IMG/VR virus record: IMGVR_UViG_3300037493_003695
Coordinates: 1-46,488 of that record
Strand: one strand, 5' to 3'
Length of the DNA: 46,488 nucleotides
Source: a virus
In this document: in pieces, positions 3,255 through 33,894 of the stretch
Layout: every line of letters starts with the position of its first letter
Position numbering within the stretch: the stretch's first letter is position 1
Notes under the pieces: model-generated
Seen by the model: the letters and a program-made list of their open reading frames with translations, nothing else
Database searches by the model: none
Told to the model about the DNA's origin: nothing
Program-made: the position numbers and the translations under genes

Positions 3255-3359
3255 TACTCAGAGAAGGACTTGAACCTTCATGTCATTTTTGACTTGGGTA
3301 GGTTACCCTAGCGTCTATCCATCGGATTATCGCAATAATCTCGCTTCCGCCACCTGAGC
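3255..3359 (-). tRNA. tRNA-Leu-like gene with D-loop insertion and 3-nt anticodon loop
   Basis: Acceptor GCTCAGG pairs with TCTGAGT, the T-arm is GAAGG-TTCAAGT-CCTTC and there is a long variable arm GTCA-AAAA-TGAC, so it is class II. The GCG/CGC D-stem and GATAGAC part look like tRNA-Leu. Two features are wrong for a working tRNA. A ~21-nt hairpin (GATTAT-TGCG-ATAATC) sits in the D-loop, and the anticodon position holds a perfect GGGTA-ACC-TACCC hairpin with only three loop bases. No normal anticodon with U33 can be assigned. It lies just behind clpP. Either a decayed tRNA or a tRNA-like RNA with another job. Confidence 0.55.
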
Positions 3360-5032: not shown

Positions 5033-6601
5033 TTATCTAACCAAACTTACAAAACCTTTTTCAACATGACCAACACCTTTATCATCACGATAATATATTC
5101 TCCAACTATAAACACCTATCTCACAATAATATCCACTATTGAAGTATCCGCCAGTCCATACTTGATTTAATGATGTCAATCTACAGACAACCGCACCCCA
5201 TCTATTATAAATCTCCATTTCAGGTTCATAGATATTAAATCCTTTGATACTGAAAACATCATTTAACCCATCACCATTAGGTGTGAAAGAATTGGGAACA
5301 TAGATTCTATAACAAGAAGTTGTTTCAATATTAATTGAATAATCATCACTTAAACATCCCCTATCATCAACCCCAAATACTGAAATAGTATGAACAGTTG
5401 TTGAGTCAGGCCAAAATAAAGATATTTGATTTGAATTATCTGATTGTACGATACCGTCAACCGACCAATAATATGTTACTCCAACAGAATCCTCAACCGT
5501 ATAATAATGATTACTAAAATCAGTACATAGGTCAATCAATAAACCATCATTTGTTATTGGGAAAGGTGGAAAATATCCTCTAACGTTAACATCAATAGAA
5601 TCAGTTATCGTACAATTATATTGTGAAACAGTATATTGTGGATAGAAAACACCAGAACCAAGAGGCTCAAATAAATTACCCGTAACATAAGGTGAATCCC
5701 ACGTACCATTAGGTGGTTGAGCGTTTAATAATACAGTTTCTGATGGACATAAATAATACGAACTATCAAAAACAATCGTTGGGTCATCCAAAGTAATGTC
5801 AACACTAACAGGGTCACCAATACATCCTTGTGAATTAGTTTCAGTTACAGATAATGTATAAGTACCAACAACATCACCCCATAATACTTCAGTGAAAGGT
5901 TGACCATCAACAGTAGTTACTCCACCACCAGTTAATTCCCAATCATATGTTGAACCAAGAGTCGGTATTACAAAATAATCGTCAGATGTGGAAACACATA
6001 ACGTATCATTGGAAAATGAAATAGGTGGGGTCACAACGTTATTTCCATCAACAACACCATTAAATACCACATAAGGAGCATCAAAACAAGATTCTGTACC
6101 CCAACTACCCATAGTACCATCTGCAAATGTTGAAACTTCAATTAATAAAGATAACGGGTCACATTGGTCGGTAACAACAAGGTTAACAGAAAAAGTCCAA
6201 TCACATATAGTTCCAAAATCACCCCAGTCATTTCCTGGGTTACCATCAGTAGGTCCTTGTGGTCCCTCGTAGAAATAACCCGGACCCTCAATCATTCCTG
6301 TTGAATTTGATGTAACACTTTCAACCCAAATCCACGTCCCATTTAAAGAACAGTTACCCGGTTCAGAAACAGGTGAATAAGAAACCCAACCATTTCCTAA
6401 ATTAAGTGAAAACCCCTCAACCCAATTAGACCCAAACTGAGTTCCATTCCAACCATTCATAGTAAAAGTCATAGTAACAACAGTACCAGGAGAATAACCA
6501 CCACCAACAGGCGCCGGACTTAAAACTGCCGACTGTATTCCTACACATTGGGAAAATACAAATGATGGGACAAGTAATAATAAAAATAAAAGTTTTTTCA
6601 T
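5033..6601 (-). CDS. Secreted surface protein with type IX secretion (CHU_C, type B) C-terminal domain
   Basis: 522 residues. Residues 1-18 (MKKLLFLLLLVPSFVFSQ) are a Sec signal peptide. The middle is a series of Ig/PKD-like beta modules rich in G, T, S, D and paired Cys. The last ~90 residues carry the type B sorting signature: NSFTPNGDGLNDVFSIKGF, then MEIYNRWGAVVCR and a final VEKGFVSLVR strand. This domain sends proteins through the T9SS in Bacteroidetes and is removed on export; the host would have to supply the machinery. The centre could bind sugar or protein. A TTGACT-N17-TATAAT promoter ends 9 nt upstream. A cargo gene taken from a host is the likely origin. Could mask receptors or alter adhesion; not shown. 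Confidence 0.85.
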   Translation of the reverse strand: MKKLLFLLLLVPSFVFSQCVGIQSAVLSPAPVGGGYSPGTVVTMTFTMNGWNGTQFGSNWVEGFSLNLGNGWVSYSPVSEPGNCSLNGTWIWVESVTSNSTGMIEGPGYFYEGPQGPTDGNPGNDWGDFGTICDWTFSVNLVVTDQCDPLSLLIEVSTFADGTMGSWGTESCFDAPYVVFNGVVDGNNVVTPPISFSNDTLCVSTSDDYFVIPTLGSTYDWELTGGGVTTVDGQPFTEVLWGDVVGTYTLSVTETNSQGCIGDPVSVDITLDDPTIVFDSSYYLCPSETVLLNAQPPNGTWDSPYVTGNLFEPLGSGVFYPQYTVSQYNCTITDSIDVNVRGYFPPFPITNDGLLIDLCTDFSNHYYTVEDSVGVTYYWSVDGIVQSDNSNQISLFWPDSTTVHTISVFGVDDRGCLSDDYSINIETTSCYRIYVPNSFTPNGDGLNDVFSIKGFNIYEPEMEIYNRWGAVVCRLTSLNQVWTGGYFNSGYYCEIGVYSWRIYYRDDKGVGHVEKGFVSLVR

Positions 6602-6610
6602 AAGAAATTA

Positions 6611-6639
6611 ATTATATACATTAGACTTTGTAAAGTCAA
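6611..6639 (-). promoter_or_regulatory. TTGACT-N17-TATAAT promoter
   Basis: Classical -35/-10 hexamers on the minus strand with a 17-nt spacer. The -10 ends 9 nt before the ATG at 6601, giving a 0-3 nt leader. The same two hexamers and spacing precede dnaK. Confidence 0.65.
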
Positions 6640-6648
6640 AAAAAGTTG

Positions 6649-6736
6649 AGGTTAGGGTCAGATTCGAACTGACGTGTGACGTTTTTCGTCAACCGGTTTT
6701 GCAGACCGCTCTTTTCAACCACTCAAGCACCTAACC
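6649..6736 (-). tRNA. tRNA-Cys (GCA) with class II long variable arm
   Basis: Acceptor GGTTAGG/CCTAACC, D-arm GAGTGGTTGAA loop, anticodon loop CTGCAAA (GCA), variable arm TGACG-AAAAA-CGTCA, T-arm GTCAG-TTCGAAT-CTGAC, discriminator U73. Anticodon GCA and U73 are cysteine identity elements, but the long variable arm and the D-arm look like tRNA-Ser. The lowest pair of the anticodon stem is G-G. CCA is not encoded. Confidence 0.8.
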
Positions 6737-6745
6737 TTATTATAT

Positions 6746-6778
6746 AAAAACACCCTTATCTATCCAACTTACAGGTGT
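6746..6778 (-). terminator. Terminator of the 7393-6745 RNA region
   Basis: ACACC/GGTGT stem with a ~20-nt loop and five T on the minus strand, placed just upstream of tRNA-Cys. Confidence 0.5.
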
Positions 6779-6958
6779 TATGGCTGTTCTCATTGCTGAG
6801 TTAGGAATAAACTGTCTTGCTCCCCTTCGTGATGGGTCTTACCGACCTTAGTAGTCAACTAGAAGGTAATATATATACAAACCTTCAACTCTTCCCTATG
6901 GTTATCACACCATTTCTCATCGTATGGGACGTACTATCTGATGATTAGTCAGAACGTG
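6779..6958 (-). ncRNA. Structured non-coding stretch between tRNA-like gene and terminator
   Basis: No open frame of useful length on either strand. Several hairpins are visible: GAAGGT/ACCTTC (6862-6867 with 6881-6886), GGTC/GACC (6835-6838 with 6844-6847) and TGGT/ACCA (6899-6902 with 6909-6912). It runs from the tRNA-like gene at 6959-7030 to the terminator at 6746-6778 and is less AT-rich than the coding DNA around it. Probably the 3' part of the RNA started from the promoter at 7422-7453. Function unknown. Confidence 0.45.
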
Positions 6959-7030
6959 TAGCCAGGACAGGATTCGAACCTATAATCTCCCTCGTTTTCC
7001 ATGGGGTGTTTCCAATTACACCACCTGACT
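6959..7030 (-). tRNA. tRNA-like gene with non-standard anticodon arm
   Basis: Acceptor AGTCAGG/CCTGGCT with A73, D-stem GTGT/ACAC, T-arm ATAGG-TTCGAAT-CCTGT, variable loop AGATT: all normal for a 72-nt class I tRNA. The anticodon arm reads CCCAT-GGAAAAC-GAGGG, with an A-A mismatch, a T-G pair and G at position 33 where U is universal. By position the anticodon would be AAA, but I would not trust this. Its 5' end is nearly the same as that of 7279-7393, so the two may be related. Confidence 0.5.
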
Positions 7031-7278
7031 ATGTTACTATCAGCTCTTCGGCATTCTACTCCCCGCAACACGGAACTGTATCTTACTTAGCCCATCGTCA
7101 GCGGTATGGGTACCGAAGTTCACTAATAGTTTGAGGATGAGAAGTCCTCTGTGTTGTAAGCATATTGTTACTTTTAACAACTTCCTTTTTTATCAATACC
7201 TCCTTTCTCAAGGGAACAACACGGTAAAAGACCTACCCTGGGACGCTGTTCTTATGGGTAGCGTAGTAGGTACTTTAG
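7031..7278 (-). ncRNA. Structured RNA with long paired domain, unknown class
   Basis: No convincing gene. A closed domain is formed by 7123-7130 with 7036-7043 (8 pairs, one G-U), continuing after a small internal loop with CTTCGG/CCGAAG (7113-7118 with 7046-7051), and enclosing CCCAT/ATGGG (7091-7095 with 7106-7110). Other hairpins: GAGGA/TCCTC (7133-7149), TTGTTA/TAACAA with a 4-nt loop (7165-7180) and CTACCC/GGGTAG (7233-7261). It is flanked on both sides by tRNA-like genes with the same acceptor sequence and is served by the promoter at 7422-7453. Confidence 0.55.
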
Positions 7279-7393
7279 TAGTCAGGGCCGGACTCGAACC
7301 GGATAAGTAACCTTACTTCTAATGGAATCTCCAAGTGTCGAGAACCACTAACTCTCAGGACTCGGGACCGTCCCTCATTACACCCACCTGACT
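7279..7393 (-). tRNA. tRNA-like gene with ~40-nt D-loop and 3-nt anticodon loop
   Basis: 115 nt. Acceptor AGTCAGG/CCTGACT with A73 and T-arm TCCGG-TTCGAGT-CCGGC are good. A GTGT/ACAC D-stem encloses about 41 nt (including GGGAC/GTCCC) instead of ~8. At the anticodon position is TGGA-GAT-TCCA, a perfect hairpin with three loop bases, followed by a variable arm AAGTAA/TTACTT. The same plan (D-loop hairpin plus 3-nt anticodon loop plus long variable arm) is seen at 3255-3359. First element after a host-type promoter. Confidence 0.5.
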
Positions 7394-7421
7394 ATTTTTT
7401 TAATCTCTCAAAGAACTTCAA

Positions 7422-7453
7422 CAAATATACAACAACTTTCTTATTCCGCCAAA
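7422..7453 (-). promoter_or_regulatory. Bacteroidetes-type promoter for the tRNA-like/ncRNA region
   Basis: TTTG, 20-nt spacer, TATATTTG on the minus strand. The -33 element lies inside the last codons of the 7441-7746 gene. The predicted start is ~22 nt before the tRNA-like gene at 7279-7393. Confidence 0.65.
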
Positions 7454-7746
7454 TCTTTTTCCACATCTTCATACCATTCTTCAACCGCAAACATTAATTG
7501 AATAAATTCACCACCATCTTCACTTGATTCGTACATCACGTGGAATCCACCTGTTGATGTGTTTGTTTTTTCTTCTAACGACATTTTTAACAATCGTCTT
7601 ACCTGTTGTCTCAATTCAGGTACAGTAGGAATACCTTCTTCAGCATCCTTCCACTCCCATTCCAATAGTTCCATTACTTTTAGGACTTTTTCAAAATTGA
7701 AGTAATCCATTACACCGTCAATCGCATCTTGTTGTTTCTGTGTCAT
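7441..7746 (-). CDS. Conserved-type phage protein, unknown function
   Basis: 101 residues, acidic, mostly helical. Contains MELLEWEWKDAEEGIPTVPE followed by LRQQVRRLLKMSLEE and a C-terminal GGFHVMYESSEDGGEFIQLM. This combination, a short helical acidic protein with an IPTVPELR segment, is familiar from uncharacterised phage proteins, but I cannot name a family. Own host-type promoter upstream; its own end contains the promoter of the RNA region below. Confidence 0.7.
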   Translation of the reverse strand: MTQKQQDAIDGVMDYFNFEKVLKVMELLEWEWKDAEEGIPTVPELRQQVRRLLKMSLEEKTNTSTGGFHVMYESSEDGGEFIQLMFAVEEWYEDVEKDLAE

Positions 7747-25707: not shown

Positions 25708-26268
25708 TTACCAATAACCTGGATATGTCTTACCACCCCAAAGGTGTCCAAATCTATTGATTCTACAAGCCCAATAACCAGCCTTTGTTCTATCTTTTTT
25801 CTTATCACATTGGTGTCTTGCTGCAAATGATTTACGTGCTTTAGGGTTAGATACCTTAGCAGTTAATCCACCATGGACATCACCAAATGAAATCTTTTTA
25901 ACATTACCTGAAGAAGGGTTTTTAACATAAACAACATATTTCTTACCCCCACCAGAGTTTCTCATTGGTCTACCCAACTGTACTTTCTTACCCTTGTATT
26001 CGGCTTCATTCAAGTCTTCCTCAATAAATGGAACATCAAGATGAACAACTTTCCCATTAGATAAGGTTGCGGTTTTTCCCATGTCTGATTTAACAATTTC
26101 AACATCATCCTCATTTAAATCAATCATCCCTTGATTATATAAATCTCTAACCTCATTAATTAATTTAAAGAAGTTTTGTGATAATGGTCTGTAAACATTT
26201 TCAGTTAATGGAATCTCATAATCCAAGTGATATTGTAATCCTTCTGAAATTATTTTATCGTTTTTCAT
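25708..26268 (-). CDS. Putative virion protein with RHxC...AGYWxCR domain
   Basis: 186 residues. N-terminus MKNDKIISEGLQYHLDYEIP and PLTEN hold ISE and LTE triplets. The C-terminal ~90 residues (KVQLGRPMRNSGGGKKYVVY, KARKSFAARHQCDKKKDRTK, AGYWACRINRF) match a short Cys-containing domain that recurs in phage and giant-virus structural or packaging-related proteins. Overlaps the PPK2 gene by 14 nt. Virion role inferred. Confidence 0.65.
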   Translation of the reverse strand: MKNDKIISEGLQYHLDYEIPLTENVYRPLSQNFFKLINEVRDLYNQGMIDLNEDDVEIVKSDMGKTATLSNGKVVHLDVPFIEEDLNEAEYKGKKVQLGRPMRNSGGGKKYVVYVKNPSSGNVKKISFGDVHGGLTAKVSNPKARKSFAARHQCDKKKDRTKAGYWACRINRFGHLWGGKTYPGYW

Positions 26269-27334
26269 CTGTTGGTGGTTTTAATACGGTTAATGCTTCA
26301 GGGAAACTTTTATCTAAAACTTCCTCATTTTTATCGTTATATGGTATATTTTGTAAAACATATCTAATTGCATTTAAACCTGAAATTCTTTTATCGTTTG
26401 AATCTACAATTACCCAAGGATGATTAACTGTTGATGTCTTATCAAATAGTTTTTCTTTAAATTCTGTGAATCTATCCCACAAATCTTGCATCTTTTCATC
26501 ATTAGGTGAATACTTCCAATATTTTAAAGGTGATTGTTGTCTCATTTCAAATCGGTTCGCCTGTGTTATCTTGTCTATTGAAAACCACAATTTAAATAGG
26601 TAATCTCCGTCTTTTACTAAACCTTGTTCAAAATCTTCAACATTATCCATAAAATCTTCATACTCCTCAGTAGAACCATAACCCATGACAGGTTCAATTA
26701 ACCCCCTATTATACCAACTTCTATCAAATAAATTAACTTTACCTGGTTGAATTTGACCTCTATATCTATCCCACCAATTTTTTCTTTCTTCAGGTGTTGG
26801 TATACCAAGAGCAATTATATTATAAAATCTTGGATTCATATTCTCAACAAATTTTTTAATTACTGAACCTTTACCTGCAGAATCTCTACCTTCAAAAACA
26901 ATAATCACAGTTTTACCTGTATTATGTAACCATTCTTGTAATTTTAATAATTCAATCTGTAAATAATAAAGTTCTTCTCTATAAACTTTTTTTGGAATGA
27001 TAGAAGGTTCTTGTGGTTCTAACTGTGGTAAATCATCTTTTTCAGGTTCCTGTAAAATAATGTTTATTTCACGTTTTTTAAGTGACTTTAGTAACTTTTT
27101 GAAGAAATCCAAAATGTTTCTATTTTTATCACCTTTCATTTTAAGGACTTTCAAAACACCTCTTTCTAATAAATTAAAATCAACAATTTGATTTTTTGAA
27201 TAATCAACAACTTGATTTAAATCTTTCTGTAGTTGAGCACTATATACATCACTATATTTTAAGATATCAATAATCCTTTTAATTTGGGATTCTGATTTTT
27301 CCTCATTTATTAAATGTTTATTTAAATTTCTCAT
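26255..27334 (-). CDS. ppk2: Polyphosphate kinase 2 family protein with N-terminal extension
   Basis: 359 residues. The PPK2 domain spans ~115-345: Walker A FEGRDSAGKGS (147-157), the second motif FDRSWYNR (203-210) and a lid region with EMRQQSPLKYWKYS. These enzymes move phosphate between polyphosphate and nucleotides, most often making NDP/NTP from polyP. Residues 1-115 are not part of the family; they begin MRNLNKHLINEEKSESQIKR (INE triplet) and are helical and charged, like the virion-associated proteins nearby. Chance to be packaged in the head and act at the start of infection is therefore real but unproven. Overlaps both neighbours. Confidence 0.88.
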   Translation of the reverse strand: MRNLNKHLINEEKSESQIKRIIDILKYSDVYSAQLQKDLNQVVDYSKNQIVDFNLLERGVLKVLKMKGDKNRNILDFFKKLLKSLKKREINIILQEPEKDDLPQLEPQEPSIIPKKVYREELYYLQIELLKLQEWLHNTGKTVIIVFEGRDSAGKGSVIKKFVENMNPRFYNIIALGIPTPEERKNWWDRYRGQIQPGKVNLFDRSWYNRGLIEPVMGYGSTEEYEDFMDNVEDFEQGLVKDGDYLFKLWFSIDKITQANRFEMRQQSPLKYWKYSPNDEKMQDLWDRFTEFKEKLFDKTSTVNHPWVIVDSNDKRISGLNAIRYVLQNIPYNDKNEEVLDKSFPEALTVLKPPTDEKR

Positions 27335-33042: not shown

Positions 33043-33894
33043 ATGAAAAACACAGAAACTTACAACGAGTTAGTTCAAAAGATGAGAACATTCTTCCAAA
33101 ACAAAGGATTTAAAGAAGTTCCAACCCAATCAAGATTGTCAATCTTGGCAGCGTGTGAAAATCCACACTCAATAACAACGTTTAATTATCAGGGAGAGGT
33201 TTGGCCACTACCACAGACAGGTCAAATGTGGTTAGAATACGAACTTCTTAAGAATCCTGAATGGGACGGTGTATATTGTATTTCAACATCTTATAGACAA
33301 GAAAAAGACCCAATACCAGGTCGTCATGAAATGATTTTCCCAATGTTTGAGTTTGAATCAAAAGGTGGAATGAAAGAAATGTTAAAACTTGAATCAGAAC
33401 TTTTAGATTATCTTGGATTTAATAGTCCTGTAGAAGTAAACTATGATGATGTTTGTGATGAATATGGTGGAGTTCAAATTTTAGAGAACGAACACGAGAC
33501 AAGAATGTGGGAAGAGAAAGGTTCAGTAGTATCTCTACAGAACTTTCCATACAGAACAAATCCATTTTGGAATATGAGAGAAGGTAAAAACAAAATATTC
33601 AACAAAGTTGATGTAATTTTATTCGGTCAAGAAACAATTGGTTCGGCTGAAAGAAGTTCCAATGTTGAAGAGATGAGAAATAACTTCTACACAATTGAGA
33701 ATGGAAAATATTCTGAAAAACTTTTTGAATTATTTGGTAAAGAAAGAGTAGAAAAAGAATTGGAAGAGTTTTTATCACATGATTTCTTCCCACGATTTGG
33801 TGGTGGAATAGGGATGACTCGTTTAGCAAGAGCTTACGAATTAAATAAAAAACTTAACGAAGAGGTTTGGGAAACTGAATCAACAGGATATTAA
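33043..33894 (+). CDS. Class II aminoacyl-tRNA synthetase-like enzyme (Asp/Asn type catalytic core)
   Basis: 283 residues, much shorter than AsnRS or AspRS (~430+). Motif 2 ISTSYRQEKDPIPGRHEMIF (Arg85, Glu87) and motif 3 RFGGGIGMTRLARA near residues 250-266 are intact, so ATP and amino acid can be bound and activated. The N-terminal anticodon-binding barrel is absent. Such stand-alone cores act as asparagine synthetase (AsnA, archaeal AS-AR) or modify other molecules. Role in asparagine supply or tRNA/protein modification in infection is inferred. No clear promoter beyond the AT-rich leader; terminator at 33899-33930. Confidence 0.85.
   Translation: MKNTETYNELVQKMRTFFQNKGFKEVPTQSRLSILAACENPHSITTFNYQGEVWPLPQTGQMWLEYELLKNPEWDGVYCISTSYRQEKDPIPGRHEMIFPMFEFESKGGMKEMLKLESELLDYLGFNSPVEVNYDDVCDEYGGVQILENEHETRMWEEKGSVVSLQNFPYRTNPFWNMREGKNKIFNKVDVILFGQETIGSAERSSNVEEMRNNFYTIENGKYSEKLFELFGKERVEKELEEFLSHDFFPRFGGGIGMTRLARAYELNKKLNEEVWETESTGY

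What the first reader, a model, noticed from the sequence alone, without database searches (positions are those of the whole stretch)
6746..7393. Promoter-to-terminator unit made only of tRNA-like and structured RNA
A host-type promoter (7422-7453) and a terminator (6746-6778) bracket ~650 nt that hold two tRNA-like elements starting with AGTCAGGTGG and two stretches rich in long-range helices, without a gene. The two tRNA-like elements share the 5' end and acceptor, so they may be repeated modules of one RNA.
Basis: partly seen in the sequence, partly recalled or inferred. Interest (0 to 1): 0.75.

Follow-up and report, generated by a model that had tools for sequence, protein, structure and literature searches.

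The report
Phage array of anticodon-less tRNA-like RNAs
A stretch of phage DNA without genes turns out to encode a string of folded RNAs, some built on a tRNA frame whose decoding arm has been replaced, and relatives of these RNAs occur in many large uncultured phages, where standard tRNA and RNA-family searches mostly miss them.

Summary
The unit is real, but larger and stranger than described. On the minus strand, a Bacteroidota-type promoter precedes tRNA-like A (7393-7279), module K (7222-7133), pseudoknotted module S1 (7130-7036), tRNA-like B (7030-6959), module S2 (6957-6748) and a normal tRNA-Cys. The proposed terminator is not supported. Only B and tRNA-Cys match an Rfam family.

Related uncultured phages show what it is. 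S1 covaries strongly (58 sequences; 15 of 24 pairs changed on both sides), as does family A. A and B belong to a diverse class: 484 distinct elements with acceptor AGTCAGG or a near variant, a tRNA T-arm, often a tRNA-Leu-type D-arm, and a variable insert instead of an anticodon arm. Occupants are exchanged at fixed positions (17 different inserts directly behind S1). The elements end like the phages' own tRNAs.

Best reading: a stable-RNA operon whose tRNA-like parts are cut out by host tRNA-processing enzymes and carry RNA cargo instead of an anticodon. Processing and cargo function are inferred; there are no transcript data. The library searched held no description of it.

The parts
7422..7453 (-). 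Bacteroidota-type promoter: TTTG (7453-7450), 20 nt, TATATTTG (7429-7422)
   Evidence: Sequence; same layout upstream of the first element in L084, L093, L088, L086, L091, L096. The consensus is recalled, not from a call.
7408..7416 (-). GTTCTTTGA leader element, boxA-like (inference)
   Evidence: 2 in the window, 0.94 expected by shuffles, so not significant alone. Over all loci 65 of 259 distinct copies have TAnnTTTG within 55 nt upstream, against 15 within about 50 nt downstream; several stand before tRNA or tmRNA genes (by eye).
7279..7393 (-). tRNA-like element A: 7-bp acceptor, second helix enclosing two hairpins, T-arm; no D-arm and no anticodon arm
   Evidence: 62 distinct members; covariation.
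7223..7277 (-). optional module X between A and K
   Evidence: Present in L084, L093, L088, L091; absent from L086, L082, L096.
7133..7222 (-). module K: helix GTGTTG/CAACAC, hairpin with TGAG in its loop, variable insert, second hairpin with CTCA in its loop (possible loop-loop contact)
   Evidence: 132 distinct copies; 656 of 690 helix pairs formed in the 115 copies that could be classed; hairpin variants.
7036..7130 (-). module S1: two outer helices, two hairpins, loop-loop pseudoknot (7104-7101 with 7066-7063)
   Evidence: 58-sequence alignment with covariation, pseudoknot included.
6959..7030 (-). tRNA-like element B: acceptor, D-arm, T-arm, abnormal anticodon arm (3-bp stem and no U33, by eye)
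   Evidence: the same slot holds other inserts in relatives.
   Evidence: 23 viral stretches; 14 distinct copies aligned, 12 of them nearly invariant.
6649..6736 (-). canonical tRNA-Cys(GCA), probably the end of the same transcript
3256..3359 (-). third tRNA-like element of the window (acceptor GCTCAGG/TCTGAGT, insert in the D-loop), not called by ARAGORN
   Evidence: same element in relatives.

Best explanation
This is a stable-RNA operon in the tRNA island of a large phage, probably of Bacteroidota. One promoter with a boxA-like leader drives a non-coding transcript made of modules. The tRNA-like elements keep what RNase P, the tRNA 3'-end enzymes and the CCA enzyme recognise (acceptor, T-arm, elbow, N73 followed by C) but have no working decoding arm. 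I propose that they are excised like tRNAs and serve as a protective chassis for exchangeable RNA cargo, while K and S1 are independent structured RNAs released between them or acting on the tRNA or tRNA-like element that follows. Shown here: anatomy, covariation, wide distribution, a 3' end shared with real tRNAs, exchange of occupants at fixed slots. Inferred: transcription as one unit, excision, CCA addition. Unknown: what the cargo does.
For: S1: 94.9% of 1325 cells paired (slid 31.7-50.0%), 15 of 24 pairs changed on both sides, 0 of 500 shuffles reach the covariation score. A: 98.8% of 680 cells paired, helix 2 100% paired with GC/AU and CG/UA exchanges; 61 of 62 members form helix 2. Among tRNA-like elements that ARAGORN misses, 26 of 37 in 78 protease-selected loci plus the window have acceptor AGTCAGG, and 58 of 118 in 109 loci selected by K alone, against 1 such element of any acceptor in the shuffled loci. 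One insert family covaries: 11 of 11 insert pairs formed in all 5 members, 4 of the 11 with changes on both sides. The base after the discriminator is C in 474 of 484 elements and in 1124 of 1131 ARAGORN tRNAs of the same loci. Slot behind S1: 27 of 97 hold a tRNA-like element with 17 insert clusters, 18 a canonical tRNA. The elements lie in tRNA islands, on one strand within each record.
Against: No RNA data. Overall folding energy is ordinary. The inserts as a group are only slightly more stable than random stretches (mean z -0.63 against -0.30, 186 each), and a common closing helix is barely detectable (mean stem score 10.13 against 9.62, sd 0.17, 140 inserts), so many inserts may be filler. 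Class members were collected with sequence patterns, which inflates conservation inside the patterns. ARAGORN may itself favour C after N73. 52 of 97 S1 copies are followed by neither a tRNA nor a tRNA-like element. S2 could not be tested for covariation.
Confidence: 0.6

Rival explanations
1. Punctuation only: the tRNA-like elements are just cutting signals that separate K, S1, S2 and other RNAs (as tRNAs do in mitochondrial transcripts), and their inserts are neutral filler.
For: The constant parts are those needed for tRNA end processing; inserts are hugely diverse (288 clusters from 484, 223 of them singletons) and weakly structured as a group.
Against: Some insert families recur in different phages and covary; family A has a covarying interior; the acceptor is kept in sequence, not only in pairing.
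Confidence: 0.2
2. One very large ornate RNA, in the manner of GOLLD or ROOL, in which the tRNA-like elements are domains that stay in the final molecule.
For: Pseudoknot in S1 and possible loop-loop contact in K; GOLLD linkers sometimes hold phage tRNAs (PMC12286853, passages); K also occurs in another conserved RNA context on contigs with GOLLD or tmRNA.
Against: Modules occur singly and in many orders, also next to canonical tRNAs; no GOLLD match to the window.
Confidence: 0.1
3. Small recombining or mobile cassettes, with the acceptor strands acting as terminal repeats that let occupants swap; any tRNA shape is secondary.
For: Different occupants between the same flanks; the constant acceptor could be a recombination handle.
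Against: No shared interior was seen, and the T-arm, D-arm and C after N73 are not explained. Target duplications and linked transposases were not searched for systematically.
Confidence: 0.06
4. Decaying tRNA pseudogenes in a relaxed tRNA island.
For: Loss of the anticodon arm; low Rfam score of B.
Against: Decay would not give one shared acceptor, covarying interiors, inserts of over 100 nt or the same A element in many phages.
Confidence: 0.04

Closest known systems
tRNA (RF00005)
   Same: Acceptor, T-arm and, in most elements, a D-arm; 3' end followed by C; located in tRNA islands.
   Different: No standard anticodon arm; A lacks a D-arm; one acceptor sequence dominates; 66-197 nt in the 204 elements measured.
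tmRNA and permuted tmRNA (RF00023, RF04321)
   Same: A tRNA-like domain with an insert in place of the anticodon arm; tmRNAs occur in some phages that carry K.
   Different: No match of the window to either model; far shorter; hundreds of unrelated inserts.
GOLLD (RF02032) and ROOL (RF03087)
   Same: Large structured phage RNAs near tRNA islands, with loop-loop contacts; GOLLD can hold tRNAs in its linker (PMC12286853, passages).
   Different: No match of the window region; here many separable modules in variable order.
tRNA punctuation of mitochondrial transcripts (recalled)
   Same: tRNA-shaped elements between other RNAs on one transcript.
   Different: Here the elements do not look able to decode, carry inserts, and their processing is not shown.

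Membership tests
canonical tRNA | Covariance-model score above the Rfam cut-off | tested here: met
   Met for B only (40.8 bits, cut-off 29); A has no match.
canonical tRNA | 5-bp anticodon stem with 7-nt loop and U33 | tested here: not met
   B: 3-bp outer stem and G at position 33, by reading the sequence and fold; A: no such arm.
tmRNA | Match to RF00023 or RF04321 | tested here: not met
   No match, nor (E up to 10).
GOLLD | Match to RF02032 | tested here: not met
   None; the model does find GOLLD in L449.
ROOL | Match to RF03087 | tested here: inconclusive
   None, but the control genomes rang nowhere.
RNA matured by tRNA-processing enzymes | Mature ends at position 1 and at N73(CCA) | not testable with these tools
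   Only the encoded C after N73 was seen.
structured RNA under selection | Covariation in relatives beyond controls | tested here: met
   S1 and A; S2 nearly invariant and not testable.

The most novel reading that the evidence does not exclude
Large Bacteroidota phages carry a cassette system of RNA cargoes on an anticodon-less tRNA chassis with one dominant acceptor sequence, read by a single host or phage factor. The tRNA-Leu-type D-arm and A73 make charging by LeuRS, which as recalled does not need the anticodon in bacteria, conceivable. Cargoes are exchanged between phages at fixed slots, for example as decoys against RNA-targeting defences or to recruit translation factors.
Probability: 0.25. 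Interest if true: 0.92.

Novelty: categorically new. Interest (0 to 1): 0.8.

Why it matters
It would add several structured RNA classes (S1, K, family A) and a large class of apparently non-decoding tRNA-like RNAs to phage biology, in places that annotation reports as a tRNA cluster plus intergenic space. It makes a direct question testable: do phages use host tRNA maturation to make and protect RNAs that never decode? It also suggests that tRNA counts of large phages are mixed with non-tRNAs, since ARAGORN of 204 such elements as tRNAs.

Tried and rejected
Folding energy of the whole unit and of single elements, insert z-scores and a common closing helix gave weak or no signal. Blastn against cultured phages found none of the unit, S1 or A; two other array queries gave only short matches. 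One of these, in a 735-kb uncultured phage, led to an element of the same design with acceptor AGTTAAG. A first pattern scan with the 5' part of B found nothing. A gapped K pattern matched 1 of 278 loci then in hand. The class II synthetase-like protein of the window was looked at as a possible charging enzyme but is only a weak, partial relative of AsnRS and EpmA; not pursued. GOLLD, ROOL and tmRNA were considered and not supported. Literature: the searches listed no description of such arrays, and none of a Bacteroidota boxA; the library holds only open-licence PMC papers. I saw search listings with the starts of abstracts, and passages of PMC12286853; no paper was read whole.

Full report
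What was checked. The window is a 46,488-base IMG/VR virus record. It encodes a protein with a type IX secretion signal domain, a Clp protease and a thymidylate synthase, and ARAGORN lists 12 tRNA genes, element B among them. On the minus strand the region reads: end of a 101-aa ORF, TTTG-N20-TATATTTG, GTTCTTTGA, element A, a spacer, element B, a spacer, tRNA-Cys. Rfam at gathering thresholds finds only tRNA; a permissive scan of 6600-7500 adds two matches far below their cut-offs.

Relatives. Blastn in 50,697 phage records finds nothing. A search with the Clp protease encoded 2.6 kb downstream gave 78 viral loci, and BLAST of the unit against all loci then fetched matched several. Of 14 stretches taken, 8 were aligned; the other 6 were identical to one of these or partial. 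Promoter, K, S1 and S2 keep their order, while module X is present or absent, the insert of K changes, and occupants of the A and B slots change: L091 has another element directly before X, and the B slot holds a 66-nt element with a 4-nt loop in most relatives and yet another in L096.

The tRNA-like class. A scan for T-arm plus 7-bp acceptor, free in acceptor sequence, over the 78 protease-selected loci and the window found 37 distinct elements that ARAGORN misses; 26 have acceptor AGTCAGG and 8 more end in TCAGG. In 109 loci selected only by K (1.01 Mb) it found 118, 58 of them with AGTCAGG, against 1 in the mononucleotide-shuffled loci. Other acceptors there include AGTCAAG and AGTTAGG, changed on both strands (pairing was required by the scan). 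From it and earlier loci 239 elements were cut out, 205 distinct; 204 of up to 205 nt were analysed, and ARAGORN of them. After all scans 484 distinct elements with four related acceptors were in hand. A strict tRNA-Leu-type D-arm occurs in 142 of 484, in 47 of 145 tRNA-Leu, and in 3 of all other ARAGORN tRNAs. In one genome for each of 84,980 bacterial and archaeal species the 3' pattern occurs in only 6 stretches, all MAG contigs. Of 20 long viral records 12 have a match, always on one strand within a record.

Element A. 62 distinct members of 73-134 nt were read from the loci. Bases 10-13 pair with four bases just before the T-arm in 61 of 62 (its regular expression limited the partner's letters), one hairpin is of the type GGNA...TNCC, and another is CC...GG. 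On a 34-sequence alignment (33 non-redundant members up to 82 nt, plus the window) 98.8% of 680 cells pair, against 19-55% when slid; 6 of 20 pairs change on both sides; no shuffle reached the covariation score. The acceptor was part of the search and extraction patterns, so its constancy there proves nothing.

Module S1. 85 distinct copies were read, 61 non-redundant; 58 were aligned, and L375, L452 and L550 were left out. With a structure set by hand from these sequences, 94.9% of 1325 cells pair, 15 of 24 pairs change on both sides, and the score is 0.400 against 0.138 (sd 0.008) in shuffles. The outer helix varies freely, with up to five pair types. Four loop bases (7104-7101) pair with 7066-7063; the pair at columns 27/70 is A-U 43, C-G 10, U-A 4, G-U 1. 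These columns lie outside the search pattern, so the pseudoknot signal is not made by the search. The structure was derived from the same alignment, which favours it over the slid versions.

Module K. 132 distinct copies: 71 class I, 44 class II, 17 unclassed. The closing helix forms 656 of 690 pairs, mostly without variation. Class I copies are followed by an AGTCAGG-like element (26), S1 (12) or something else (33, several of them tRNAs by eye). Hairpin 1 varies in a few copies with its stem and TGAG kept, facing CTCA in hairpin 2: suggestive of a loop-loop contact, not proof. Class II sits in another conserved RNA, once about 160 nt before a tmRNA and once on a contig with GOLLD.

Cargo. 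Inserts fall in 288 clusters, 223 of them single. One family of 5 has an insert helix with 11 of 11 pairs formed in all five, 4 with changes on both sides. Another, of 11 members of which 10 were aligned (the longer L426 copy was left out), shows C-G/U-A exchange at two column pairs. As a group, inserts are only slightly more stable than random stretches. So some cargo is structured and selected; for most this is unknown.

3' ends and slots. The base after the discriminator is C in 474 of 484 elements and in 1124 of 1131 ARAGORN tRNAs, while C makes up 18% of the window. Behind S1, 27 of 97 contexts hold a tRNA-like element (17 insert clusters), 18 a canonical tRNA, 52 neither.

Mechanism. The constant parts are those that RNase P, RNase Z and the CCA enzyme read in tRNAs (established knowledge, recalled); the lost part is the one needed for decoding. 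The leader GTTCTTTGA recurs behind TAnnTTTG and, by eye, before tRNA and tmRNA genes, as expected for stable-RNA operons; that it is a boxA is inference. I therefore commit to excision by the tRNA-processing pathway, with the tRNA frame as chassis for RNA cargo (about 0.6). A role for LeuRS or in counter-defence is speculation.

Limits. Everything is comparative sequence analysis of uncultured phages. S2 is nearly invariant in 12 of 14 copies and remains untested. That the phage infects Bacteroidota rests on the promoter type, the secretion-signal domain and MAG contigs mostly labelled Bacteroidota.

Noticed in passing
window 3256-3359 (-): A third tRNA-like element (GCTCAGG/TCTGAGT) with a hairpin inserted in the D-loop, conserved in relatives and missed by ARAGORN.
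   Followed up: partly
window about 8518-8442 (-): Between tRNA-Ile and tRNA-Phe lies a further tRNA-like sequence by eye (acceptor CGAGAAT/ATTTTCG, loop TTCGATT), not called by ARAGORN.
   Followed up: no
L141 17416-17588, L144 16777-16949: A tRNA with anticodon CAT carries behind its anticodon an insert that is itself tRNA-like (own T-arm and acceptor).
   Followed up: no
L409, L412, L422, L426, L432, L457, L477: A recurrent tRNA-like element of about 150 nt with varying acceptors and a shared core around CTCCTTAATACTAGGATCGGAG, missed by ARAGORN.
   Followed up: no
L390 9882-10047, L401 10545-10620, L422 1525-1600: 76-nt tRNA-like elements with an unusual D-side (TATCCCCTC or TATACCCTC), missed by ARAGORN.
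   Followed up: no
L092 13870-14066, L086 6676-6863, L235 4212-4391: tRNA-like elements whose D-loop holds a smaller nested hairpin with its own T-loop-like sequence.
   Followed up: no
L442 180-720 (-), L449 3961-6200 (-): Class II K lies in a larger conserved RNA (CCCTACTCTT...AAGAAAGAGGG) near a tmRNA in L442 and on a contig with GOLLD in L449; that RNA had no Rfam match.
   Followed up: partly
L172, L522, L528, L541: Some S1 copies sit shortly before an ATG instead of a tRNA, so S1 might also act in cis on a gene.
   Followed up: no
window 7210-7201 (-): Module K holds AGAAAGGA, which would pair with the 3' end of Bacteroidota 16S rRNA as recalled (TCCTTTCT); possibly coincidence.
   Followed up: no
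window 33043-33894 (+): 283-aa protein with a class II synthetase core, weakly like AsnRS and EpmA.
   Followed up: partly
window 26255-27334 (-): A polyphosphate kinase 2-like protein encoded by the phage.
   Followed up: no
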